From contig JABAQQ010000019.1 of NCBI GenBank assembly GCA_019187225.1, positions 62,001 to 126,000 of the forward strand: DNA of 64,000 nt, written 5' to 3'. Within the stretch, counting starts at the first letter, position 1. Every line of letters begins with the position of its first letter. Made by a program: the position numbers and the translations under genes. Positions 52,166 to 63,878 of the stretch are shown here, piece by piece. Below the pieces are notes generated by a model. That model was not told the DNA's origin and made no database searches. It was given only the letters and a program-made list of their open reading frames with translations. Source of the stretch: Saprospiraceae bacterium. GTDB taxonomy: Bacteria; Bacteroidota; Bacteroidia; Chitinophagales; Saprospiraceae.

Positions 52166-52579
52166 TTAGGTTTTCTGCCAAAACTGTTGAAATTCAGAGA
52201 GTTTCATGGCGACGACTTTGGGGAAGCCAATCTTTTTCAGGACTTTAAAATGCCGGTCGTTGGTCACGATGAGGTCTGCATTGGCGGCAATGGCACAGTC
52301 CACAAACTTATCGTCGTCAGGATCGTTGGCAATCAATTTCCAGCGGACGTGAACGGTAATTTTTTGTGTTCCGGGAAGTTCGAGTATCGTTTTGGTGACG
52401 AGGTTTCCGAGCACATCACTGCTGAAGAACTCATCCAGCACTTCCACGTATTCGTCGAGGATGTCGGTTGTCACAGCCAGTTTGACGTCTCCGCGCAGTA
52501 TGGCATCGTACATCCAACGATGTTCGGCCTTGCGAGGCAGTATTTGGACAAGACAGTTTGTGTCGAGGACGATGGTCAC
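52166..52579 (-). CDS. PIN-domain toxin (COG1569-like), second copy
   Basis: 137 aa PIN domain: IVLDTNCLVQ at the N-terminus, EYVEVLDEF near residue 44, NDPDDDKFVDCAIAANAD near residue 85 and VTNDRHF near residue 106 give the acidic cluster of the RNase site. Overlaps the antitoxin stop by 4 nt (translational coupling). Related to the toxin at 1556 and to the broken copy near 53300. Confidence 0.88.
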   Translation of the reverse strand: MTIVLDTNCLVQILPRKAEHRWMYDAILRGDVKLAVTTDILDEYVEVLDEFFSSDVLGNLVTKTILELPGTQKITVHVRWKLIANDPDDDKFVDCAIAANADLIVTNDRHFKVLKKIGFPKVVAMKLSEFQQFWQKT

Positions 52580-52827
52580 GGATTGGCTGAACGCTTTTTG
52601 CTGCGGAGATGCAGGTTTTGGGTCGCTTTTTTAAAGGACTCTTGCGTGTAGCCGCGTTTTTCCCAAATTTCATCCAATGCCTCGTCGGCTTTGCGGGCGT
52701 AGTATTGAGCCAGCAATTCCTTGATTTCCAGCAATTCGCGCTCTGTCATCGTTCGGGAAAACAATTCCAGCAAGTGCAACTGCACGGGATTGAGTTTGGT
52801 AGGTGTTTCGGCTGATGAAGTTGTCAT
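52576..52827 (-). CDS. Antitoxin partner of the second PIN toxin
   Basis: 83 aa, charged and helical (FSRTMTERELLEIKELLAQYYARKADEALDEIW), with a basic end (LRSKKRSANP). Overlap with the toxin and the promoter directly upstream define the operon. Not similar in sequence to the first antitoxin. Family not recognised, but the LxEIKxLLAxYYAxKADE pattern is frequent in antitoxins next to COG1569 toxins. Confidence 0.78.
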   Translation of the reverse strand: MTTSSAETPTKLNPVQLHLLELFSRTMTERELLEIKELLAQYYARKADEALDEIWEKRGYTQESFKKATQNLHLRSKKRSANP

Positions 52828-53203: not shown

Positions 53204-53293
53204 GAGGTGTCATCGCCGAAGGAACGAAGGCGGTGACATCTCGCAGCGGTGGTCAGGAGATGTCGCCCCTCCCCGTTTCCGGGACGACACCTC
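53204..53293. repeat. REP-like element, family B, intergenic copy
   Basis: GAGGTGTCATC (53204-53214) pairs with GACGACACCTC (53283-53293), one mismatch; the inside carries GATGTCGCCCCT. Same family as the in-frame copy in the kinase gene. It abuts the broken PIN gene. Confidence 0.75.
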
Positions 53294-53405
53294 CTGATCA
53301 ATTTTGAAATACCAGCCGCCGGTCACAATAATGTCAGCATTGGCAGCGACGGAGCAGTCAACAAACTTATCGTTGTCGGGGTGACCTGCAAGTGCATTTG
53401 AACAG
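53294..53405 (-). pseudogene. PIN toxin remnant
   Basis: In minus sense HPDNDKFVDCSVAANAD, then IIVTGGWYFKIDQE, matches NDPDDDKFVDCAIAANAD, LIVTNDRHFKVLKK of the toxin at 52166. The N-terminal half and the last ~25 residues are missing, and the catalytic Asp region (VTND) is changed to VTGG. The family B repeat starts where the match ends, so insertion or repeat-mediated deletion is likely. Confidence 0.7.
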
Positions 53406-53467
53406 GGTCGGGTCACGATGAAGTAGGGGAAATGCAGCGGCTTTTTTTAAAAAGGGTGACTAAATTT

Positions 53468-54667
53468 TCATTGCTTCAACAGCACACACTCCACCCGCCT
53501 GTTCTTCTGCCGTCCTTCTTCCGTTGTGTTGTCGGCTACCGGGCGGCGCTCGCCGAAGCCGCGTGAGCGCAGCCGTTCGGCGGGGATTTCTTTGGAAATC
53601 AGGTAGTCGAAGACAGCTTTTGCGCGCCGTTCGGAAAGATCGAGGTTGTATTCTTCTGAGCCGGCATCGTCCGTATGCCCGGCAATGCCGAGTTCGGATG
53701 CAGGATATTTTTTCAAAAAAATGACCAGCGAGTCCAGTTCGGCGCCCGCTTCCGGTCGCAGATCGGCTTTATCAAAGTCGAACAGCACTCCTGCGCTGAA
53801 GGTAAATCGCCGCTCTTGAAGCAACTGTTTCTCCATTGTCAGCACGGGCGCCTCCGGCTCGATTTCAGGTGCGACAGAAATATCATCTATGCACAAATAT
53901 CCTGCTCTTTTCGTGCGGTCAATGGGGAATTTGGTCGCGTCGTTTTGTTGCTCGATGCGGCGGTGCTGCCCGGCGCTCAGATTGTTGGCCGTCTGGCTGT
54001 CGCTGAAAAAATTGCCGATGAGAAAATATTGGAAAGGCTGGTCGGGCACGAAAGTGGCGGACAACCTGACCCAGGCCCCGTTCGTGGCGATGATGTCGGA
54101 AAAGTTGACTTGCGGGCGCAACAAGCCATCCTGAACCAGTTGCCAGAAGCCACCCCGGACATTTTGTTGCCGCAGCACAGAAAATGCAAATCCCAGATTG
54201 CCGGCCTGCACCGGCTCGACGGGTGTTTTCGGCGAATAAACTTTTGCCAAATGGTCAAGTATAATGGCCGAATCTTCACGCACCCATACTTCCACGCGGT
54301 ATTTCCGGCCCGGCTTGAGCGGCGCCGAAAGCCGTCCCTGCACTACTTCGTGATAGTCGCCTTTTTGCTGACCCACATCTTCCCCCGGCAGGTAATGGAT
54401 GATGCCGAGGCAAAATTCGCCCGAATGTGCCGCCTGCATGAAGTGGCAATTTTCCGCTGCTCGCAGTACATCGGGTGTCATGTCAGGAAAAGTCGTCCAA
54501 ACCTCGATCTTTTCTCCGAAAAAGGTAGAAGACTGCATAAACTCGCACGACACCGTTATCGCGTTGGATTTCAACTGCTCGAAGGAGGGGTTGAGGACGA
54601 GATTTTGTGCAGGCAACTGGCCGGGGGAGAGCAAGAGGGGAAGCGTTAAGCGAGCGATCTTGAGCAT
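53468..54667 (-). CDS. OmpA-family protein with N-terminal jelly-roll-like domain
   Basis: 399 aa from ATG 54667 (MLKIARLTLPLLLSPGQLPAQ, signal peptide). Residues 20-240 begin NLVLNPSFEQL and look like a sugar- or protein-binding sandwich. Residues ~290-399 form an OmpA C-terminal domain (FDFDKADLRPEAGAELD, AGHTDDAGSEEYNLDLSERRA, RSRGFGERRP, NRRVE) that binds peptidoglycan. Same domain build as the C-terminal part of the protein at 60038. Last gene of the peptide-export locus on this strand, so possibly an envelope component of it. Confidence 0.87.
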   Translation of the reverse strand: MLKIARLTLPLLLSPGQLPAQNLVLNPSFEQLKSNAITVSCEFMQSSTFFGEKIEVWTTFPDMTPDVLRAAENCHFMQAAHSGEFCLGIIHYLPGEDVGQQKGDYHEVVQGRLSAPLKPGRKYRVEVWVREDSAIILDHLAKVYSPKTPVEPVQAGNLGFAFSVLRQQNVRGGFWQLVQDGLLRPQVNFSDIIATNGAWVRLSATFVPDQPFQYFLIGNFFSDSQTANNLSAGQHRRIEQQNDATKFPIDRTKRAGYLCIDDISVAPEIEPEAPVLTMEKQLLQERRFTFSAGVLFDFDKADLRPEAGAELDSLVIFLKKYPASELGIAGHTDDAGSEEYNLDLSERRAKAVFDYLISKEIPAERLRSRGFGERRPVADNTTEEGRQKNRRVECVLLKQ

Positions 54668-54736
54668 GGCGTATAGCAGCAAACGTTTCAGATGGCCGGA
54701 TATTAGCTTTGGGTTAAGGAAATTATCGCAGCGACC

Positions 54737-54836
54737 GTGTCATCATCTGAGATGTCGCCCCTTCCTGCATCAATGATGACATCTCCCTCCCTCTAAGCTG
54801 CCTCCCTCAATACAACGCAGTTCTGTCTGGCGGGTA
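54737..54836. repeat. Family B partial copy joined to family A copy 3
   Basis: GTGTCATC with GATGTCGCCCCTTCC and ATGATGACATCTCC (54737-54787) is a B-type palindrome; GCAGTTCTGTCTGGCGGGT (54818-54836) is the A-type head, ending 2 nt before the HlyD stop. The two families occur side by side again, as at 53.1-53.3 kb. Confidence 0.65.
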
Positions 54837-54838
54837 TT

Positions 54839-56152
54839 TTATCTGTTTTGCAGCAAATCGCGCAAACTGCCGAAAATCCGGTCAATCACTCTTCGGTCTT
54901 CGGTGACGATGCGTACCTGTCCCGACATTTCCTGCCGGAAAGGGATGGCCTTGCTATATGTAGTGGTCAATGAATCGGATAAATACAAGTCGAGGAGGTA
55001 TACTTCTTCCTGTCCGTCTTTTTTCGGGAGCAGGGACATATTGGCAACGGTTGTTTCGAGGACACCGAATTGTTGGGCAGGATATCCATCCAAACGAATG
55101 ACGGCGCGTTGGCCGGAGGCGATTTTGCCCGAATTCAGCAAAGGCAGGGTCGCTTTTCCGACAATCCCCGTAGCGTCGCCGGCGGTATTGGAAACCGGTA
55201 CGATGGCCAGCACTTCTTCGCCGGCGCCGACAGATTGTTGAGCGCTCCAGATTTTAGAAAAAGAGACATGGCCGCTGATGGGCGCGGTGATGAGAAAAGA
55301 TTGTTTCCATCCGGCGATGGCACTGCGCAGCAGCTGAAGGTCTTCCGCAAGGCTTAGTTGTTTTTCGTTCAGATTGTCGGATTTTCCCTGGCGCAGGTCG
55401 TTGATCTGACTTTCCAATTGCCTGATCTGCATTTGATTTTGTAAAGCGACGGACTCGGCGTTTTGGTGCTGACGCTTTTGTTCGAGATATTTTGCTTCCG
55501 ATACTTCAAATTCCCTGTCCGCGATGACTTTGTCGAGATGAAGTTTTTGCTGCCGGCGATATTCTTTTTCTGCCAGAGCGAAAGCTTCCTGCATGGTGGC
55601 CTTTTGTTTCAAAATATTCACATACATGGCCTCCAACTGGGTTATTTGTTTTTGCAGGTACCCGATGCGTTCTTCAATTCCATTGAACCGGGAAAAATAA
55701 TCGAGGTCTTTCCAGTGTTGGCTGAATGCGGAATAAGCGTTTTGCAGTTCGCCGAGATGTAAGCCGGTTGGCAAGGAGGTTTTTTGCCCGCCGGTGCTAT
55801 CGAGCCATGACTCTAAGCGCATCACATCGCGCCATTGTGCAGGATTTTCCAACACTGCGAGTAATTGTCCTTGCCTCACCGTCTGTTTGTCCGCAACCAG
55901 AAGTTCGGTCACCCGCCCACCCGAGTTGGCCAATATCCGAATGGGTGGATGGGCGGTAGTGAGCACTACCCGTGCCTCGATAACATCGGGATAGTGGATG
56001 AAATAACTCAAAGCCAGCAAAAGCAGAAATGCGCTCGCCATTACGGTAATGCCGTATCGCATCATCCATGATGGCGGGTTGCCGAGGAGGTACTGGATCT
56101 GCTCGCGGTCATCATATTCAGTACTATCAGATGGCTCGTAAGAAAATGTCAT
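54839..56152 (-). CDS. HlyD-family periplasmic adaptor of the peptide exporter
   Basis: 437 aa. Short cytosolic N-terminus, one TM helix (ITVMASAFLLLLALSYFIHYP near residue 35), lipoyl-like half (NSGGRVTELLVADKQTVRQGQLLAVLE), long coiled-coil hairpin (residues ~150-280, LEAMYVNILKQKATMQEAF), second lipoyl half (FLITAPISGHVSFSK) and a C-terminal beta region. Membrane-fusion proteins of this type join a C39-peptidase ABC exporter to an outer-membrane channel. The exporter is at 61500; no TolC gene is present in the window. Confidence 0.9.
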   Translation of the reverse strand: MTFSYEPSDSTEYDDREQIQYLLGNPPSWMMRYGITVMASAFLLLLALSYFIHYPDVIEARVVLTTAHPPIRILANSGGRVTELLVADKQTVRQGQLLAVLENPAQWRDVMRLESWLDSTGGQKTSLPTGLHLGELQNAYSAFSQHWKDLDYFSRFNGIEERIGYLQKQITQLEAMYVNILKQKATMQEAFALAEKEYRRQQKLHLDKVIADREFEVSEAKYLEQKRQHQNAESVALQNQMQIRQLESQINDLRQGKSDNLNEKQLSLAEDLQLLRSAIAGWKQSFLITAPISGHVSFSKIWSAQQSVGAGEEVLAIVPVSNTAGDATGIVGKATLPLLNSGKIASGQRAVIRLDGYPAQQFGVLETTVANMSLLPKKDGQEEVYLLDLYLSDSLTTTYSKAIPFRQEMSGQVRIVTEDRRVIDRIFGSLRDLLQNR

Positions 56153-56239
56153 ATATTAATAATTTGAGCGATTCATAGGCAATGTACTTTGATCGCTAAC
56201 CTGTTCGCAGAAAACAGGAGTTGACCCTTTCAATGAAAA

Positions 56240-57787
56240 CTATGTTGAAAAATAGTATAAATCTGAAATGGAATAGCAATCGGGCAAAACTCTGTCGTTA
56301 AAAAAAATGGTAGGCGTGTGTTTAATGTTTTTGGCACACCAGTCATGCTGATTTGTCAGGATTTTATTATATTTTTCAGCAGCTATGTCATAAGATGCTT
56401 GTTTGTCTTGATAATAAACTTCTTCAGGTTTTTCCCAAAATATATTTCTTCCGAATTTATCTATATTTTGTAACGCGTTTTTTGCCATACTGTATTTTTC
56501 TTGTAACAGGTCATCTCCTGCTGCAAATATTATATTTATTTTAAAAGGTAATTTTTTATTAAGGATCAGGGATTTTAATTCATTGTGTAACTTAGCGCAA
56601 GGCGCACAGGCAGGATTCGTTACGATGGTTAATACATGCTTTCCATTATCATCAACTGTAATTTTATCCACTCCCTCTAAAGAAACCTGTTTGCCGCTCT
56701 GTAATAAAAAGTCAAATATTTTTACATCATATTTAATGGAATTTAATTTTTTTATACTGTCCTTTAGCGAATCATTAAATAATATATGCTTTTCATACAG
56801 CCAGGTTGATAAGAAGAACAACAGGAATAAAAAGAGCCCAATGAGAAAGGCAACAGGCGTAATAATAAGACGGTCGCTTTTAATATATAATGATGCCACT
56901 AAAACCTCTAACCAACATACTAAGAATGTTCCAATGCAAAGAAAACACCATTTTTTAATAATAAATTTTTGGTACCATACCGAGAAAAATGAAAAAAAGG
57001 CAGGAAGTAATGAAAAGCAAAAAGAAAAGCTTATTGCATAGGATAAATTGAATGAGGAAAGTATCGCTAAAGAAGTTACACCACTGGAAAAATATGCCAT
57101 ACCCAAACCGGACAATTCAAAAGCACCATATAGGTTGGAGACGGGAGAATTAAGGACTTTATAGCAGTCAGAATCGCCTGTTGCTTTGCACACCTTATCT
57201 ATGAGATTTTTATCTCCACTGGTTTTATATTTAAATAACATAACTGTTATCGCAAGCCCAAGCAATTTTATAAGGAACAACGAAATATAAGTTAATGATA
57301 TATCCAGCGTTATTTGATTTATAAAAAGAAAAAAAATAATTAGCAATAATGCGCCGATAGCCAGTTGCAAAGTGTTTGATTTGAGTTTATTTATAATATA
57401 TTTAATTTTGCCCGTTTCTTTTTTTGGATATGCGACCAATACAATCGGCTGCCATCTTTCAAAAAAGTCTTCAGCTGAGATTTGCTTCAATGATTTCCCC
57501 TCCGAAGTATAATAAAAGATTGCATCATCAGTAGTTTTAATGATAATTATGGCTTTTCCTAACACCTGTGAAAAGGTAATTATCGGTAAAGAAAATTCGG
57601 AGAGAGCGGCTAATGAAGGTTCTTTTAACTCCAATAAATAATTTTCTATACCCCAAGCATGGAGCGCATCGCTCACACTCAATAATGAAGGGTAGTCAGG
57701 GTGAAGTTTAAGCTCAGATAAGTCGGAGACGTAAATTCCTTTCAGGGAGAGATATTTTTTTGCAACGAAATCCAGACTTCGGCTCAT
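56240..57787 (-). CDS. VKOR-thioredoxin protein with inactive C39-like N-terminus
   Basis: 515 aa, AT-rich codon use. Residues 1-125 resemble a peptidase C39 domain (HPDYPSLLSVSDALHAWGIENYLLEL in parts: HPDYPSLLSV, DALHAWGIENYLLEL) but lack the Cys-containing DCG motif, so probably non-catalytic. Residues ~140-345 are a multi-TM VKOR domain with loop cysteines (VCKATGDSDCYKV) and active-site WCFLCIG. Residues ~375-515 form a thioredoxin-like domain with NPACAPCAKLH and further Cys (WCAKN, PDCY). VKOR uses quinone to make disulfides. Next to an eight-Cys precursor this suggests oxidation of that peptide, with the C39-like domain perhaps holding its leader. Confidence 0.87.
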   Translation of the reverse strand: MSRSLDFVAKKYLSLKGIYVSDLSELKLHPDYPSLLSVSDALHAWGIENYLLELKEPSLAALSEFSLPIITFSQVLGKAIIIIKTTDDAIFYYTSEGKSLKQISAEDFFERWQPIVLVAYPKKETGKIKYIINKLKSNTLQLAIGALLLIIFFLFINQITLDISLTYISLFLIKLLGLAITVMLFKYKTSGDKNLIDKVCKATGDSDCYKVLNSPVSNLYGAFELSGLGMAYFSSGVTSLAILSSFNLSYAISFSFCFSLLPAFFSFFSVWYQKFIIKKWCFLCIGTFLVCWLEVLVASLYIKSDRLIITPVAFLIGLFLFLLFFLSTWLYEKHILFNDSLKDSIKKLNSIKYDVKIFDFLLQSGKQVSLEGVDKITVDDNGKHVLTIVTNPACAPCAKLHNELKSLILNKKLPFKINIIFAAGDDLLQEKYSMAKNALQNIDKFGRNIFWEKPEEVYYQDKQASYDIAAEKYNKILTNQHDWCAKNIKHTPTIFFNDRVLPDCYSISDLYYFST

Positions 57788-58113
57788 TGTATTTGAATGG
57801 TTGTGATGTTTAAAAAATGTGATGTTAGGATTGAAAGTTCAAGGCAAATCCTGAGAACATGTCGGTGATTTTCATTCCAGGTTAAAAACGCTTCTTTTCC
57901 GCCATTTTCCACCTTTTTCAGTCACGTAGCCCCGGCTATACTCCTTCAAAAACGCGCGAAATGGTGAAAAAATCTTTCGATTTTGGCTCCGGCAGAATAT
58001 CCCCAATATGTTCTGAATCCCCGACGATCGGAATAAACGAGGTGTAACAAAAAATTGAAATGAACATTTAAATCATTTCTATTAATTGTTAAATTTAGTT
58101 TGAAGAAATATTT
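57788..58113. other. Gene-free spacer between the VKOR and TlpA genes
   Basis: 326 nt with no credible ORF on either strand and no strong hairpin. The middle part (57850-58050) is less AT-rich than both neighbouring genes, which suggests a relic or inserted piece. No promoter box of the TAnnTTTG type was seen before the VKOR ATG. Confidence 0.4.
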
Positions 58114-59421
58114 TCAGTTTATTTTTTTAATAATTTTTTCAATACTATTTTCTCTTATTATCTCTTTTGCAGACTTATCAAGAAGAATATACGTAGGGAG
58201 CGCATTCACGTTAAAATGCTTGGCGATGCTTTCTTTGGAGGCGTTATCAATTGAATGAAACCAATTTAGCTCCTTGTTATTATCAAGAAACCTTTTCAGG
58301 TGGTTTACGTCATCATCCACTGAAATGCCAATTATTTTTAACCTGTCCATGCCTAATTGCTTTTTTAATGATATTAAACGTGGCGCCTCTTCAAGGCATG
58401 GCCTGCACCAAGTTGCCCAGAAATCGAGCAGATAATAATCGGCCCTCAAATCGCGAAATGATATCGAATCACTTTTGTCCAAATTATATATCATTATTTT
58501 TTTTAAATGCTCGGCTTTTAGAGAATCGCCTGTATCAGATTTGGAGTCGCCATATCTTTTAAAAATAATTTTATCTCCCTTTAAATTAACAATGGCTTTA
58601 TATTTCATATTGTTTATATTGATAATAGAGTCTTTCGTTAGATACTTCAGTGGCTTTTGTCTAATATCAACCGGACTGCCACTCATTATTAAAGCATAAT
58701 TACTGTAATTACATTCCTCCCCTAATTTGAGAGAAATATATCCATACACTCTCGTATCATTTAAAATACATGAAAATTGTCTGTGCTCAATTATTGCTAT
58801 TATAACATAGTGATTTCCGGAAGGGTTTCGCGGGTTTACAATAACATCTGGGGAAAAACCCCTTACCTCCACAAGTAAATTTCTTTTTACGGTTTTCTTG
58901 CCATCATAGTATTCAAATGATATAATCGCTTCGTTTCCTGCCAGGTTATCGAATATGTCTTTTTTGTATTTCACAGACGGCTCAAATGTGTACATTATAT
59001 CATCGCTAAAATCAAAGTTGTTATTTGCATCAACTATAATCTGCTTAATGCCTTTTTTATCAAGATTGCTAATAATAAAAATGCTGTTTTTTGTTGCTTT
59101 TTCAGAAAGCAAGGATGTGTCTATGAATTGGTACAATCGAATTGAATCCAATTCGTCAGCGTATCCATTTTTAAAATTTTCATAAAGGCTTTGTTCCCAA
59201 TGAAGGGGGAACTTAAAAATGAAGTAATTGTTAAATGTATCCGGAACTCCTTTTAGTGCCGGTAATGACTTCGGTATGGTTGATATTACAAATGAGGTGG
59301 AAATAGGATAACCGCCGATGTATAAATCAGTCGCAAATGCGGAGTGATCCAATGTGTCTTCCTGTGAATATGCAAACACCGTTGCAAAATTCAATAAGAT
59401 AATGCAAAAAAATTTTTCCAT
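58114..59421 (-). CDS. Exported TlpA-like thioredoxin-fold protein
   Basis: 435 aa from ATG 59421 (MEKFFCIILLNFATVFAYSQ, signal peptide; a TTG at 59463 opens the frame but lacks merit). A long beta-rich N-terminal part (residues 20-290, no known family) is followed by a thioredoxin domain (~300-435) with LDFWATWCRPCLEEAPRL, a CRPC redox motif, and ALPTYILLDK with the cis-Pro. CRPC motifs are found in reductases/isomerases of the TlpA group. Placed between the Cys-rich precursor and VKOR genes, it could proofread the disulfides of the peptide. Confidence 0.87.
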   Translation of the reverse strand: MEKFFCIILLNFATVFAYSQEDTLDHSAFATDLYIGGYPISTSFVISTIPKSLPALKGVPDTFNNYFIFKFPLHWEQSLYENFKNGYADELDSIRLYQFIDTSLLSEKATKNSIFIISNLDKKGIKQIIVDANNNFDFSDDIMYTFEPSVKYKKDIFDNLAGNEAIISFEYYDGKKTVKRNLLVEVRGFSPDVIVNPRNPSGNHYVIIAIIEHRQFSCILNDTRVYGYISLKLGEECNYSNYALIMSGSPVDIRQKPLKYLTKDSIININNMKYKAIVNLKGDKIIFKRYGDSKSDTGDSLKAEHLKKIMIYNLDKSDSISFRDLRADYYLLDFWATWCRPCLEEAPRLISLKKQLGMDRLKIIGISVDDDVNHLKRFLDNNKELNWFHSIDNASKESIAKHFNVNALPTYILLDKSAKEIIRENSIEKIIKKIN

Positions 59422-59463
59422 ATTAAGTAAGCGGGCTTTCCCTTTTCTATACTTTGTATGCAA

Positions 59464-59705
59464 TGAAAAAAACAGGCGCAGTCAATTAGAAATTGATCAT
59501 CAAGCCTATTTGCGGGTTACCTGCTTTACAACTTAACGCCGCCAAGATTAACATTAAATCACTGATTGAGCAGTAGTATCCAACCGATTGATCATGAACC
59601 GGGTTAAGACCTGTTTCAATAGTTTGAAATATGCGAATTACTGCTTCAGGGAAGTAATCTGAAAAACTTGGCGGCTGATAAAGTAAAATTCAGGCAATGC
59701 TGCTA
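59464..59705. other. Non-coding stretch downstream of the precursor gene
   Basis: 242 nt without a gene. GCCGCCAAG near 59535 and CTTGGCGGC near 59669 are complementary 9-mers 125 nt apart; they could close a larger RNA structure between the precursor and TlpA messages. Confidence 0.35.
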
Positions 59706-59909
59706 TTAACTGTTCTGTGAAGTGCATGTTGTAGTTCCGCTACAACATGCCTTCTTGTCAACAAGGTAATAATCGCATCTTGCTCCTGCGCCACAATCAA
59801 CACAGTTGGTGTTTCCCCAGCAGCATGTGATATTGCCACCGGTGAGCAATTTGGCTTCCCGACGGGAAAGGACGTTTGCGTTGAATTTTGAAAAATCTCT
59901 TTTTTCCAT
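59706..59909 (-). CDS. Double-glycine-leader peptide precursor with eight cysteines
   Basis: 67 aa. Residues 1-25 (MEKRDFSKFNANVLSRREAK plus LLTGG) are a typical Bacteroidota double-glycine leader: Phe/Leu-x-Lys-Phe start, LSRxExKxLTGG end. This is the cleavage signal for a C39 peptidase, which is encoded nearby. The 42-residue core starts NITCCWGNTNCVDC and has Cys at core positions 4, 5, 11, 14, 20, 30, 31 and 37, enough for four disulfides. Neighbouring redox genes fit disulfide bonds rather than thioethers; no lanthionine or other modifying enzyme is present. A bacteriocin or signalling peptide is likely; activity unknown. Confidence 0.85.
   Translation of the reverse strand: MEKRDFSKFNANVLSRREAKLLTGGNITCCWGNTNCVDCGAGARCDYYLVDKKACCSGTTTCTSQNS
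59724..59750 (-). promoter_or_regulatory. Perfect 11-bp hairpin in the precursor's core codons
   Basis: GCATGTTGTAG and its exact complement, 5-nt loop, lie in the codons for ACCSGTTTC near the 3' end of the precursor gene. In mRNA this is a strong stem-loop that could protect the precursor message or reduce expression of downstream genes. Confidence 0.6.
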
Positions 59910-59931
59910 AATTAAAAATTAAATGTTTGAT

Positions 59932-59951
59932 CTTGTATTCACGGATACAAG
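59932..59951. promoter_or_regulatory. Operator-like inverted repeat upstream of the precursor
   Basis: CTTGTAT and ATACAAG separated by 6 nt, 23 nt before the ATG at 59909. Size and position suit a dimeric DNA-binding protein; the HTH domain encoded at 61429 is the nearest candidate. Confidence 0.45.
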
Positions 59952-60037
59952 GTTGCCGTCTGTACTTTTTTTTAAATGGAGATAATACAATCACCATCTT
60001 CAGGAGGTTCCAGATTTTTTCCTGTATGAATTAGTAG

Positions 60038-61429
60038 TTACTCACCAGGATTTAAAAAAATAAATTCAACTCTGCGGTTCGCCTGCCGGGCCAAAGGTGA
60101 TTTATCTTTAATCAATGGGTGACTATCTCCTTTGGCCTCGATAATAATTCTGTCTTTGTTTATTTGTCTCATAAGAAGTTGTTTTTCAATTTCTTTCGCG
60201 CGGTTTTGCGATAATCTCATATTATATTCTTTTCCTCCCACATCATCTGTGTGACCGATTATTTTGATTTTAAGGGGCATGTTCTCCTGAAGTATCCTTG
60301 CGATCGAGTCAATTTGGGTATAAGTAGAATCCGTTAGGATAAATTTGTCGGTTTCATAGTTTATATTCTTTAGTATATAAATTTTTCCTGTTTCTATATT
60401 TCCTGGAAGATATTCATTTGAAGGGACAATGCTTATATCGTCAATAAGAATGAAAGAATAACTATTGCCATCATTTACAGACTTAGTGCTGTCATCGGAA
60501 TAAAAATTTCCAATCAGTAAATATGCATAATTTGAGTCGCTCCTGTATGTTGTATTGACTCTTATCCAATTGTAAGTATCTATTATGGTATCAATATTGT
60601 ATTTTGGGGTCAGGAAATTTATAACGCTTTCAGACGCATATCTTACTTTGTGGGTTGATAAAGATATTCCCAGATTGTTTGTTTTAACGCTTCCATCCAC
60701 CAATTTGAGCCAGAATTCGATTCTGTAATTCTTTCCCGGTTCCATAGGTTCCAAAAGCTCACATTGGATATATTCTTTACAGTGTGTCGTTCTGCTCCTG
60801 CATCCGAATGTTTTTATTCCAACCATTATTTTCCCGCTTCGGATCGTGCAATCAGTGAATATCAGCTCATCCCGTTTAGGATACATTTTATTACAGTTGT
60901 CGGTTGATAATAAATCTGGAGAACCATTATTGGGGGAATCCCAATCAACTACTTTTTTCTCAAAAGAACGATAGGTGCCGGACCATCGGTTGTCAATAAA
61001 ATTTATAGATTCAAAACTGGGGTTAGGCACAATGTTCTGCGCGTTGCATATGTTTGAAAAACTGAACGGTAATAGCCATATCACAAAACGAATTGTTCTC
61101 CAAAGGAAGGAGTCCTGGCTGCCAAATTTTGTCAGTCTCTCAAAAAAATTGAATCTTTTTTCACCGCCTCTAATGGTCAGAAGTTTTTCCGAACCGACTA
61201 CTATGGAGATGTCGAGTTTCACCTGCTCCATATAATAATAAGTATCAGATTGTTTATCGTAAGCGATAGGGAAGCCCTGGTCACGGAGGTCTGCCAGCAG
61301 GCGATATACGTCGCGCTCGCAGGTATTCAGCCGTTTGGCGAGTTGCGCTGGCGTACCGGTGGCTCGGGTGCGGATGAGGTGGTCAATCCGCTGAAGGAGA
61401 TAGAGGTCGTCGAAGATTCTAATTTTCAT
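60038..61429 (-). CDS. HTH-(signal/anchor)-jelly-roll-OmpA fusion protein
   Basis: 463 aa from ATG 61429 (MKIRIFDDLYLLQRIDHLIR). Residues 10-65 are an HTH like those of small DeoR/WYL-type regulators (GTPAQLAKRLNTCERDVYRL), then YYYMEQVKLDISIVVGSEKL, as in stand-alone Bacteroidota HTH proteins of about 100 residues. Residues 110-131 are a signal-peptide-like segment (FVIWLLPFSFSNICNAQ). Residues 132-340 begin NIVPNPSFESI and match the sandwich of the protein at 53468; residues ~350-460 are an OmpA domain (IGHTDDVGGKEYNMRLSQNRA, NRRVEF). Either a ToxR-like membrane regulator or two genes fused by deletion. Confidence 0.8.
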   Translation of the reverse strand: MKIRIFDDLYLLQRIDHLIRTRATGTPAQLAKRLNTCERDVYRLLADLRDQGFPIAYDKQSDTYYYMEQVKLDISIVVGSEKLLTIRGGEKRFNFFERLTKFGSQDSFLWRTIRFVIWLLPFSFSNICNAQNIVPNPSFESINFIDNRWSGTYRSFEKKVVDWDSPNNGSPDLLSTDNCNKMYPKRDELIFTDCTIRSGKIMVGIKTFGCRSRTTHCKEYIQCELLEPMEPGKNYRIEFWLKLVDGSVKTNNLGISLSTHKVRYASESVINFLTPKYNIDTIIDTYNWIRVNTTYRSDSNYAYLLIGNFYSDDSTKSVNDGNSYSFILIDDISIVPSNEYLPGNIETGKIYILKNINYETDKFILTDSTYTQIDSIARILQENMPLKIKIIGHTDDVGGKEYNMRLSQNRAKEIEKQLLMRQINKDRIIIEAKGDSHPLIKDKSPLARQANRRVEFIFLNPGE

Positions 61430-61436
61430 GGCGAGA

Positions 61437-61490
61437 TAAAAGCGGCAATGTGCCAAGTTGTTAAAGTGCTAATGTGCTGATCTTCTGAGG
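61437..61490. repeat. Degenerate 7-mer array (TTAGCAC/GGCACAT type)
   Basis: Between the exporter stop and the HTH-OmpA start; minus sense AGCACATTAGCAC and TTGGCACATTGCC show the 7-nt period. It fills the whole intergenic gap. Confidence 0.5.
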
Positions 61491-61499
61491 CGAAAATGC

Positions 61500-63878
61500 T
61501 CATGTGCCCAATTCCAGCTGGTTCTTGACAAGGTTGTAATAGGCTCCGCGCAACATGGTAAGTTCTTTGTGGGTGCCGGTTTCCACGATTTGGCCTTTGT
61601 CCAAAACTACGATTTGGTCGGCGTGGCGAACGGTGCTTAGGCGGTGTGCGACAATGACAACAGTTTTGTTTCCTTCATTTCCCTCCCGGCCATCTCCATT
61701 AGGAAAGAATTTTCTGCGGTAAAACCATTGTAGGTTTTCCACAATTGCCCGTTCGTTGTTGGCGTCGAGGGCATTGGTAGCCTCGTCAAAAAAAAGGAAA
61801 TCGGGGTTTTTATAGACAGCGCGGGCTATCAGGAAACGTTGTCGCTGCCCTTGGCTGATACCATTGCCGGTTGTACCGATTTTGGTATTGTAACCAAGCG
61901 GCAAACCTTCGATGAATTCGCGGATATTGGCTGTTTCTACTGCCTGGAACATGCGACCGGGATCGGGGCGCTCATCACATTCCGAAATATTATTGGCGAT
62001 GGTATCGGAAAAAATAAAACCATCCTGCATTACTGTACCGCAGCGTTTGCGCCATTCGGAAGGTTTGATTTGTTGCAACGGAGTGTTGCCAACGCGAATA
62101 CTGCCTGTTGTCGGCTGGTAAAATCCGAGCAGGAGTTTGACCAAAGTCGTTTTTCCACTCCCGCTGGCCCCGACAATGGCAGTCACTTTTCCTTGCGGAA
62201 TGAGCAGGTTGATTCTGTGCAGCACATTGTTGTGCAGTTGATTATAACGGAAGGAGAGATTTTCAATGTAGATATCTTCTCGATCGGCGGATTTTATGAA
62301 GGTTCTATCTTTGTCATAAACCGGGACGGCATGGCCCCTGCCATTCGCCAATGGCGAAGTAACTGTTCCGGACCCGCCAAAATGCTGTAATGAATCTTCA
62401 TCAGGCTGGTCTTGTATTTCCCCCATTCGTTCAAGGCTGATTTTGGCATCTTGCGCGGCGCGAATAAAAGTAATAAATTGCTGGAGCGGAGCATCCATTT
62501 GCCCCACCATATATTGCACAGCCAGCATCATACCGAGCGTCATCTGGCCGTCAATGACGGATTTGGCCGCCAGAAAAGCAATAAAGATATTTTTGCTTTG
62601 ATTGATAAAACCGGCGCCGGCTTCCTGCCATTGGGAGAGGTTGAGCGACAATAAGTTTGTATGGAAGAGTTTTGCCTGTATACCTGTCCAAATCCAGCGG
62701 CGTTTGCGTTCAGAACCCTGTAGTTTTATTTCCTGCATCCCTTGTATCAGTTCTATAACAGCGTTGCTGTTTTCACCAGACTGTTGGAAGCGCAGGTAGT
62801 CAATCTCTTTTCGACGACGCAAGAAGAACAGTATCCAAAAAACATACAAGATGGCTGCGGTGCAAAATATACCAAAAATTGTTGTATTGTATGCTGCCAA
62901 TACAAAACCGAATACGATAAAGTTGATGGCAGAAAACATAACTGGCAAAGTAGATTGGGTCAAAAATGCCTCGATACGTCCCTGGTCGCCGATGCGTTGC
63001 ATCAGATCTCCCGTCATTTTGGTATCGAAAAAACCAATTGGCAGGCGCATCAGTTTAGCGAGAAAATCGCTGACCATTGCCACGTTGATGCGAGTACCTA
63101 TAAACAGAAGAATGCGGCTTTGCAAAAACTGCACCGTCATTTGACTGCAAAACAACATCAATTGAGCCAGCAGCATAAGATTGATAAAACCGATATTGCG
63201 GTTATCAATTCCAAAATCTACTATACTCTGGGTCAATAAAGGGAAAATCAATGTGAACACACTTGTCAATACCATGCCTGCTATTACCTGCAACAATAAC
63301 TGGCTGTGCGGGCGCACATAACCCAACGCATGCTTCAATCGCGTGGTTGAAGTGGATGTGCTGGCTTCGTGGCGATAAAAGTCCGGAGTGGGTTCGAGCA
63401 GTATCAAAATACCTTGCCCGACATCACTGATCCATGATTTTTCAAAATCAGCGCGTTTTAGTTTGAATTTTCCGGCACCTGGGTCGGCTACCCACACGCA
63501 ATGTTTGTCAGCTCTGTACACGACAACAAAATGGTTCTGGTTCCAATGCGCAATACAAGGAAGCGGTGCGGTAAGTAAACAAGCAGTATCTTTTCCAGTG
63601 TAAAAAGGTACTTTTACAGTCATGGCACGGAATCCAATACTTTCGGCGGCTTCCATAATGCCTTGTGCCGATACGCCGTCACGACTGAGGTAACTGCGTT
63701 CACGCAGATAGGGAAGAGGGTATTTCCGGCCATAAGCAGCGGCTACCATCATCAGACAGGCAGGGCCGCAATCCATGGCATCGCGTTGGTGATAAAATGG
63801 AAAAACGAAGGGCATTTGTGTTTTGAATGTTTGATTGGGTTCGGATGCGCTGCTTCGATCCTCGTTCAGGATATTCAC
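61500..63878 (-). CDS. Peptidase-containing ABC transporter (C39 protease-exporter)
   Basis: 792 aa. Residues 25-170 are a C39 cysteine protease: RDAMDCGPACLM with catalytic Cys 37, CIAHWNQNHFVVV with His near 118, and VADPGAG with Asp. Residues ~190-480 hold six TM helices. The ATPase follows (~540-790): Walker A GASGSGKTT, signature variant ISQGQRQR in place of LSGGQ, Walker B FLFFDEATNALD, H-loop VAHRLSTV. A 35-residue Gly/Pro-rich insert precedes the ATPase. It cuts precursors after the double Gly and exports the core; the only such precursor here is at 59706. First gene of the locus. Confidence 0.95.
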   Translation of the reverse strand: MNILNEDRSSASEPNQTFKTQMPFVFPFYHQRDAMDCGPACLMMVAAAYGRKYPLPYLRERSYLSRDGVSAQGIMEAAESIGFRAMTVKVPFYTGKDTACLLTAPLPCIAHWNQNHFVVVYRADKHCVWVADPGAGKFKLKRADFEKSWISDVGQGILILLEPTPDFYRHEASTSTSTTRLKHALGYVRPHSQLLLQVIAGMVLTSVFTLIFPLLTQSIVDFGIDNRNIGFINLMLLAQLMLFCSQMTVQFLQSRILLFIGTRINVAMVSDFLAKLMRLPIGFFDTKMTGDLMQRIGDQGRIEAFLTQSTLPVMFSAINFIVFGFVLAAYNTTIFGIFCTAAILYVFWILFFLRRRKEIDYLRFQQSGENSNAVIELIQGMQEIKLQGSERKRRWIWTGIQAKLFHTNLLSLNLSQWQEAGAGFINQSKNIFIAFLAAKSVIDGQMTLGMMLAVQYMVGQMDAPLQQFITFIRAAQDAKISLERMGEIQDQPDEDSLQHFGGSGTVTSPLANGRGHAVPVYDKDRTFIKSADREDIYIENLSFRYNQLHNNVLHRINLLIPQGKVTAIVGASGSGKTTLVKLLLGFYQPTTGSIRVGNTPLQQIKPSEWRKRCGTVMQDGFIFSDTIANNISECDERPDPGRMFQAVETANIREFIEGLPLGYNTKIGTTGNGISQGQRQRFLIARAVYKNPDFLFFDEATNALDANNERAIVENLQWFYRRKFFPNGDGREGNEGNKTVVIVAHRLSTVRHADQIVVLDKGQIVETGTHKELTMLRGAYYNLVKNQLELGT

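What the first reader, a model, noticed from the sequence alone, without database searches (positions are those of the whole stretch)
53468..63878. Complete-looking export locus for a disulfide-rich double-glycine peptide
Seven same-strand genes form a logical set: C39-ABC exporter, HTH-OmpA protein, precursor with LTGG leader and eight core cysteines, TlpA-like thioredoxin, VKOR-thioredoxin, HlyD adaptor and OmpA protein. Two separate redox systems next to an eight-Cys core suggest a dedicated disulfide-forming route in place of lanthionine chemistry. Bacteroidota bacteriocin loci with C39 exporters and HlyD proteins are known (for example bacteroidetocins), but this core and the paired OmpA proteins are not ones I recognise.
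Basis: partly seen in the sequence, partly recalled or inferred. Interest (0 to 1): 0.85.

Follow-up and report, generated by a model that had tools for sequence, protein, structure and literature searches.

The report
Disulfide-rich peptide export locus
A bacterium carries a small gene set that makes a cysteine-rich peptide, appears to lock it with disulfide bonds using an oxidase that carries what looks like its own leader-recognition domain, and exports it; related gene sets occur in many members of the same bacterial phylum.

Summary
In detail: seven same-strand genes at the stated places, including a 67-aa precursor (LTGG leader, 42-aa core, 8 Cys). It is one case of a phylum-wide system. 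A C39-like/VKOR/thioredoxin protein was found in 41 of 395 genomes of the phylum. In 48 of 61 such loci a same-strand double-glycine peptide with at least 4 Cys lies within 4 kb; a looser leader search recovers 10 of the other 13. With 80 further, mostly Flavobacterium, loci, 79 of 86 core clusters have an even Cys number; 0 of 223 opposite-strand cores have 3 or more Cys. At 23 C39-exporter loci without VKOR nearby, 12 GG peptides have 0-3 Cys. The VKOR protein's N-terminal domain has the C39 fold without the catalytic triad. Its positive charges lie on the active-site side (53 of 54), the reverse of other VKORs in the phylum (13 of 15). I infer a cytoplasm-facing oxidase that binds the leader and makes disulfides before C39-ABC/HlyD export. 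The first OmpA is a low-GC fusion to the HTH gene, absent from the syntenic relative. Orientation, chemistry and bioactivity are predictions.

The parts
61500..63878 (-). C39 peptidase-ABC exporter (P0001, 792 aa); expected to cut after GG and export the core
   Evidence: PF03412 114 bits, ABC_membrane and ABC_tran; C37/H116/D132 conserved in 40 of 40 exporters aligned; 69% identical in L069
61121..61429 (-). HTH part of the HTH-OmpA ORF (ATG 61429), ends near a LLTIRGG motif
   Evidence: six stand-alone homologues of 88-122 aa, four beside C39-ABC genes; all seven, window included, end in or near xGG
60038..61120 (-). OmpA1: low-GC OmpA-family protein fused in frame to the HTH 3' end
   Evidence: PF00691 71 bits; absent from L069; GC 0.36 against 0.48 for the HTH part
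59706..59909 (-). Precursor peptide, 67 aa (P0003): leader 59909-59835, core 59834-59709 with 8 Cys
   Evidence: syntenic homologue L069:6543-6773 (30%, E 1e-4 in the small search; E 0.08)
58114..59463 (-). TlpA-like protein (P0004), thioredoxin-like C-terminal domain with WCRPC; likely start ATG 59421; putative signal peptide by inspection
   Evidence: PF13905 66.7 bits; a TlpA match in 23 of 61 VKOR loci
56240..57787 (-). C39-like / VKOR / DsbA-like thioredoxin protein (P0005): C39-like domain about 57787-57422, VKOR about 57301-56867, thioredoxin about 56701-56243
   Evidence: PF07884 51 bits; fold matches; six redox Cys in 61 of 61 homologues
54839..56152 (-). HlyD-family adaptor (P0006)
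   Evidence: PF13437 41 bits, TIGR01843 below its cut-off; 55% identical in L069
53468..54682 (-). OmpA2 (P0007), likely start ATG 54667
   Evidence: PF00691 85 bits; an OmpA-domain match (ORF cut by the contig end) at the same operon position in L069

Best explanation
The locus makes and exports a ribosomal peptide cross-linked by up to four disulfides. (1) The double-glycine leader of the precursor is held by the catalytically dead C39-like domain of P0005 (inferred from fold homology). (2) The DsbA-like thioredoxin domain and VKOR active site of the same protein, predicted to lie on the cytoplasmic side, oxidise the core cysteines and pass electrons to membrane quinone (VKOR chemistry is established for the family; the orientation is predicted from charge bias). 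(3) The C39-ABC exporter cuts after LTGG and exports the folded core with HlyD and an unlinked outer-membrane channel (inferred). (4) A periplasmic TlpA-like protein, present in over a third of such loci, may reshuffle or proofread disulfides (inferred). The likely role of the product is a bacteriocin or another secreted effector; this is not shown.
Against: No experiment. The positive-inside rule is statistical; Lys near CxxC could serve quinone or lipid contacts, and Asp/Glu partly offset the K+R in the Cys loop (3.6), before TM0 (2.6) and after TM5 (2.9). 2 of 15 VKORs without the C39-like domain show the same bias. 7 of 61 C39-like VKORs could not be parsed. A simple hydropathy scan finds five of the six helices in the window protein (it also marks a stretch inside the C39-like domain). 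Leader binding by the dead domain is inferred from fold only. The cytoplasm is reducing, so oxidation there must outrun thioredoxin. The window's own VKOR is divergent (20-26% identity in A1) and its core has no close homologue (cluster of one). Seven clusters have a majority odd Cys number. Co-occurrence does not prove that the Cys become disulfides.
Confidence: 0.6

Rival explanations
1. Same locus and product, but the VKOR-thioredoxin faces the periplasm like ordinary bacterial VKORs and oxidises the core after export; the C39-like domain then serves as a docking domain rather than a leader reader.
For: Canonical VKOR-DsbA systems act in the periplasm (established knowledge); the TlpA-like partner has a putative signal peptide (inspection); bacteroidetocin loci pair a C39-type exporter with a thiol oxidoreductase (PMC6671954 passages).
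Against: Charge bias is reversed in 53 of 54 and in 61 of 61 by alignment columns; an even number of membrane helices would put the C39-like domain in the periplasm, where no leader is expected.
Confidence: 0.25
2. The Cys-rich peptides are not disulfide bacteriocins: the Cys are used otherwise (metal binding, glycosylation), and the redox proteins keep them in the needed state.
For: Some relatives carry glycosyltransferases between VKOR and exporter (L268, L270) and one a LanC-like gene; no activity is known; seven clusters have odd Cys counts.
Against: No glycosyltransferase, LanM, LanC or radical-SAM match in the seven window proteins; even Cys counts fit pairing; VKOR chemistry makes disulfides.
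Confidence: 0.1
3. The 67-aa ORF is a chance frame and the exporter handles a substrate encoded elsewhere.
For: The core has no close homologue; another GG-leader-like ORF exists elsewhere in the genome (L185).
Against: 60 shuffles never give 8 Cys; a homologue lies at the same operon position in L069; the L185 ORF has no Cys after its GG.
Confidence: 0.03

Closest known systems
Bacteroidetocins (PMC6671954, passages read)
   Same: Bacteroidota; GG leader; 42-residue mature peptide with an even Cys number; double-glycine-peptidase ABC transporter; a thiol oxidoreductase gene in the locus
   Different: Four Cys and a 15-aa leader; four-gene set with a five-TM protein; the words thioredoxin, HlyD and C39 do not occur in the text. 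Here: eight Cys, 25-aa leader, C39-like/VKOR/Trx fusion, TlpA, HlyD. Sequence relation of the oxidoreductases or cores was not tested
Bacterial VKOR-thioredoxin fusions (Synechococcus VKOR, 4nv5/3kp9)
   Same: VKOR fold, loop Cys pair, CxxC, C-terminal thioredoxin-like domain
   Different: N-terminal C39-like domain plus one extra helix before the VKOR core; reversed charge bias
Inverted VKOR/DsbB engineered for E. coli cytoplasm (mentioned in PMC5471842, passages; Hatahet and Ruddock 2013 seen in its reference list only) and Aeropyrum pernix VKOR in two compartments (Hibender 2017, title in a reference list only; not held)
   Same: The principle of a cytoplasm-facing VKOR that makes disulfides there
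   Different: Those are engineered or archaeal; that they are not tied to a leader peptide or an exporter is recalled
NCBIfam NF047798 'bacteriocin-like protein', NF047792 CCPGW, TIGR04149
   Same: 14, 5 and 9 of 44 precursors chosen from these loci match at E up to 0.01
   Different: P0003 matches none at that level; TIGR04149 is described as radical-SAM-modified, and no radical-SAM match was found in the seven window proteins
[not shown]
   Same: C39 fold without the protease triad (protease loss in HlyB is recalled)
   Different: Here the dead domain is fused to an oxidase, not to an ABC transporter

Membership tests
Double-glycine peptide / C39-ABC export system | Short leader ending in a GG-type motif, adjacent C39-ABC exporter with intact Cys-His-Asp | tested here: met
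Double-glycine peptide / C39-ABC export system | Membrane fusion protein and outer-membrane channel | tested here: inconclusive
   HlyD present; no TolC match in the seven proteins or six flanking ones checked; rest of the genome not searched for TolC; TolC present in Emticicia relatives
VKOR family | PF07884 over cut-off, loop Cys pair and CxxC | tested here: met
   51 bits against 27.5; six redox Cys in 61 of 61
Canonical periplasmic VKOR-DsbA | Active site on the periplasmic side | tested here: inconclusive
   Only predicted: charge bias points the other way in 53 of 54; no topology experiment
Bacteroidetocin family | Four Cys in a 42-residue mature peptide | tested here: not met
   42 residues but 8 Cys here against 4
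Bacteroidetocin family | Sequence similarity of the core to bacteroidetocins A/B | not tested
   their sequences were not compared
TIGR04149 radical-SAM-modified RiPP | Curated score 25 bits and a radical-SAM enzyme | tested here: not met
   15 bits; 21.0 bits in the six-frame search; no radical-SAM match in the seven proteins
NHLP/lanthipeptide export system | TIGR03796 exporter cut-off; LanM/LanC | tested here: not met
   463.9 bits against 853.3; no LanM/LanC match in the seven proteins
Bacteriocin | Antibacterial activity | not testable with these tools
   -

The most novel reading that the evidence does not exclude
A phylum-wide, largely unnamed class of exported peptides whose disulfides are installed in the cytoplasm, before export, by a naturally inverted VKOR-thioredoxin oxidase that selects its substrates through a dead C39 protease domain acting as a leader reader. 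Disulfide formation is here a leader-guided post-translational modification, like the cross-linking of lanthipeptides, and one oxidase serves operons with ten or more hypervariable cores sharing one leader.
Probability: 0.5. Interest if true: 0.87.

Novelty: new variant of a known kind. Interest (0 to 1): 0.74.

Why it matters
If true, disulfide formation becomes a leader-directed RiPP modification done before export, by a natural counterpart of the engineered inverted VKOR used to make disulfide proteins in E. coli cytoplasm. It gives a simple genomic handle (C39-like VKOR next to Cys-rich GG ORFs) to a large, mostly unnamed set of disulfide-rich peptides in culturable Bacteroidota such as Flavobacterium and Emticicia, and a possible tool for making disulfide peptides.

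Tried and rejected
A single-sequence scan of genome contigs with the VKOR protein found nothing, and the broad alignment A1 was too variable for pattern scans; replaced by profile searches of whole genomes and an alignment A3 of close VKORs. A search for the precursor itself in 150 family genomes gave, besides itself, only weak hits (E 0.014 to 0.1); one of them (L016, the same place as in L069) proved syntenic, the others were not followed. Chance ORF: rejected. Lanthipeptide or radical-SAM chemistry: no such match in the seven window proteins. PDB sequence search with the precursor gave one meaningless hit, and with the VKOR part of P0005 alone none. The P0005 model is moderate (mean pLDDT 75, pTM 0.43), so domain folds are used and not their arrangement. 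Repeat and promoter/terminator scans gave nothing that bears on the case. The 'HTH' GC3 value was read in a wrong frame and is not used.

Rows dropped or limits: fragments at G383:C13, G458:C57:9756-11259 and G479:C33 were not fetched. In one search, 7 of 61 C39-like VKORs did not parse (all 61 are counted by columns), and of the 30 PF07884 loci given (L155-L184) 15 were used as controls (10 are C39-like, 4 gave no VKOR-domain hit, 1 near-duplicate left out). Of 24 exporter control loci one (L142) was set aside because of a 46-bit VKOR-profile hit; only 5 of the other 23 gave any GG peptide, and several of their genomes carry a C39-like VKOR elsewhere. The strict leader rule forbids Cys in the leader and so misses, for example, the second L069 precursor. 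The peptide scan left out ORFs overlapping labelled genes; for the 80 loci only ORFs overlapping VKOR were left out. Some of those 80 are the same contigs as among the 61; identical cores were counted once. One search kept the best 80 of 101 relatives.

Literature: 10 searches, several with capped lists. No title or abstract start listed there describes C39-like VKOR fusions or VKOR-associated GG peptides; the library holds open-licence papers only. A VKOR phylogeny paper (PMC4555120) has no occurrence of 'peptidase', 'C39' or 'Bacteroidetes' in its text. Seen: passages of PMC6671954, PMC4555120, PMC12453122, PMC5471842; the rest as search listings.
Full report
What is there. The precursor ORF has a 25-residue leader ending LTGG and a 42-residue core NITCCWGNTNCVDCGAGARCDYYLVDKKACCSGTTTCTSQNS with eight cysteines. 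Of three GG-leader ORFs in the window under a fixed rule it is the only one with any cysteine after the GG, and 60 shuffles of the window never gave eight. The genome holds no second copy and one other Peptidase_C39 match, on contig C6 (neighbourhood L084).

Relatives show which parts belong together. The closest syntenic locus, L069 (G107:C240), has C39-ABC (69% identical), HTH (49%), a homologous precursor and a second Cys-rich GG peptide, TlpA (22%), the VKOR protein (28.5%), HlyD (55%) and an OmpA-domain ORF cut by the contig end, in the same order and strand. It lacks OmpA1, and its HTH gene ends on its own 30-odd codons after an xGG motif. In the window the HTH frame runs straight into an OmpA whose DNA has 36% GC, while the HTH part has 48%. 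OmpA1 therefore looks like a fusion or insertion, not a shared part; an OmpA match appears in 3 of 61 loci, the window included.

The VKOR protein marks a family. With a 13-sequence profile it was found in 41 of 395 genomes of the phylum, and with the single protein in 12 of 199 genomes of the window's own family, own genome included in both. I fetched 13 loci and 47 stretches, and with the window have 61 loci. Using one fixed rule (ATG start, Cys-free leader, [LIVMF]xGG, core of at least 15 residues), 48 of 61 loci have a same-strand peptide with at least 4 core Cys within 4 kb of VKOR. A looser look finds a Cys-rich peptide with a GA/AG leader or a missed GG leader in 10 of the other 13 (by inspection, no null model). 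The remaining three are L071, whose held DNA ends about 110 bases after VKOR, and L101 and L116. An exporter match is in 43, HlyD in 41, TlpA in 23 of the 61; some contigs are short.

Cysteine parity and strand. One search gave 80 named loci, mostly Flavobacterium; 68 of 80 have a peptide with 4 or more Cys. Pooled with the 61, identical cores counted once, there are 226 distinct same-strand cores. Those with 3 or more Cys form 86 clusters at about 40% identity: 79 mostly even, 7 mostly odd (binomial p 1.5e-16). Of 223 distinct opposite-strand cores in the same stretches none has 3 or more Cys. Even counts are what paired cysteines predict. The odd set includes three similar seven-Cys peptides (L075-L077) and remains unexplained.

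Control. Of 24 C39-exporter stretches from the same phylum, 23 have no VKOR; 5 of these gave GG peptides, 12 in all, with 0 to 3 Cys. The control is small, most of its loci gave no peptide, and several of its genomes carry a C39-like VKOR elsewhere, but none of the 12 resembles the VKOR set.

Orientation. One extra helix precedes the VKOR core, giving six long helices in the model, so both soluble domains should lie on the same side as the active site; a simple hydropathy scan shows five of the six in the window protein and six in several relatives. Lysine and arginine are concentrated on the active-site side (3.0, 4.5, 2.4 and 6.9 per segment) and nearly absent from the other (0.10, 0.07, 0.28), although acidic residues partly offset them in three of the four. 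Measured by motif anchors, the active-site side has more K+R in 53 of 54 parsed proteins; among 15 VKORs without the C39-like domain the opposite holds in 13. Reduced to 50%-identity clusters 32 of 33 agree, and counted by alignment columns 61 of 61. The aligned part of the crystallised Synechococcus VKOR has the ordinary pattern. Five plasmid-borne homologues (Emticicia, Spirosoma, Parabacteroides) keep the reversed pattern. By the positive-inside rule the C39-like VKORs face the cytoplasm. This agrees with logic: the GG leader is removed in the cytoplasm by the exporter, so a leader-reading domain is useful there.

Proposed mechanism. Shown: gene set, association, parity, predicted domain folds, loss of the protease triad, charge bias. 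Inferred: leader capture by the dead C39 domain, oxidation by the thioredoxin/VKOR pair in the cytoplasm with quinone as acceptor, cutting and export by C39-ABC/HlyD, periplasmic editing by TlpA. The product is most simply a bacteriocin-like peptide; its target is unknown.

Named relatives. Contig length identifies genus g127 as Flavobacterium (L105 and NZ_WUMO01000001.1 both 1,143,181 bases). In Emticicia oligotrophica DSM 17448 a plasmid typed as conjugative carries histidine kinase, LytTR regulator, VKOR, two GG-motif peptides with six Cys each, TlpA, C39-ABC, HlyD and TolC in a row; its second plasmid carries two VKOR genes, four small Cys-containing GG/AG peptides (6, 6, 4 and 6 Cys), three TlpA genes, exporter, HlyD and TolC. 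Spirosoma oryzicola has VKOR, two glycosyltransferases with a six-Cys GG peptide between them, C39-ABC and HlyD; a Parabacteroides distasonis record has VKOR, a six-Cys AG-leader peptide, a LanC-like gene, glycosyltransferases and C39-ABC. In six of the seven plasmid records matched the VKOR is annotated 'vitamin K epoxide reductase family protein'; in the four records opened with an annotated peptide or not, the peptides are 'hypothetical protein' or unlisted.

Known or new. Parts are known: C39 exporters, VKOR, GG leaders, bacteroidetocins with a thiol oxidoreductase (PMC6671954, passages). 14, 9 and 5 of 44 chosen precursors touch NCBIfam leader models. In ten searches of an open-licence library no listed title or abstract start describes the C39-like VKOR fusion or its peptides; subscription papers are not covered. 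I rate it a new variant of a known kind, with the leader-guided cytoplasmic oxidase as the bolder reading.

Mosaic. The stretch 56.2-61.15 kb (VKOR, TlpA, precursor, OmpA1) has 27-41% GC in 200-nt steps against about 41-56% on both sides; in L069 VKOR and TlpA are likewise poorer in GC than exporter and HlyD. Together with 69% identity of the exporter and 22-30% of the cargo genes this suggests that cargo and its oxidase are exchanged as a block against a more stable exporter.

Limits.

Noticed in passing
window 61168-61163 and HTH genes in L016/L069, L074, L080, L082, L083, L132: All 7 distinct HTH proteins of this type end in or close to an xGG motif much like a double-glycine leader end, 4 of the 6 relatives beside a C39 exporter; a role in sensing or being cut by C39 is possible.
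   Followed up: partly
window 56200-61150: Sharp low-GC block (27-41%) holding VKOR, TlpA, precursor and OmpA1 inside a higher-GC exporter frame; L069 shows the same tendency.
   Followed up: partly
L085 and L086 (same genus, g128): Operons with ten or more Cys-rich GG peptides that share nearly one leader but have unrelated cores.
   Followed up: no
L167 and L177: Short stand-alone VKORs without a C39-like domain that also have the reversed charge bias; possibly other inward-facing VKORs.
   Followed up: no
L268 (Parabacteroides distasonis) and L270 (Spirosoma oryzicola): VKOR/C39-ABC loci with glycosyltransferases, one also with a LanC-like gene: perhaps glycosylated disulfide peptides.
   Followed up: partly
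L075-L077: Peptides with seven core Cys, an exception to the even-number rule.
   Followed up: no
L185 (G000:C4:167843-167932): Another GG-leader-like ORF in the same genome without Cys after the GG; no exporter in the 3 kb held.
   Followed up: partly
L084 (G000:C6): A second C39-ABC plus HlyD pair in the same genome without VKOR or a detected GG peptide.
   Followed up: partly
window 52166-52827 and about 53210-53416: A PIN-domain gene with a small upstream partner (toxin-antitoxin-like) and, nearer the locus, a short ORF that looks by eye like a remnant of a second PIN gene.
   Followed up: partly
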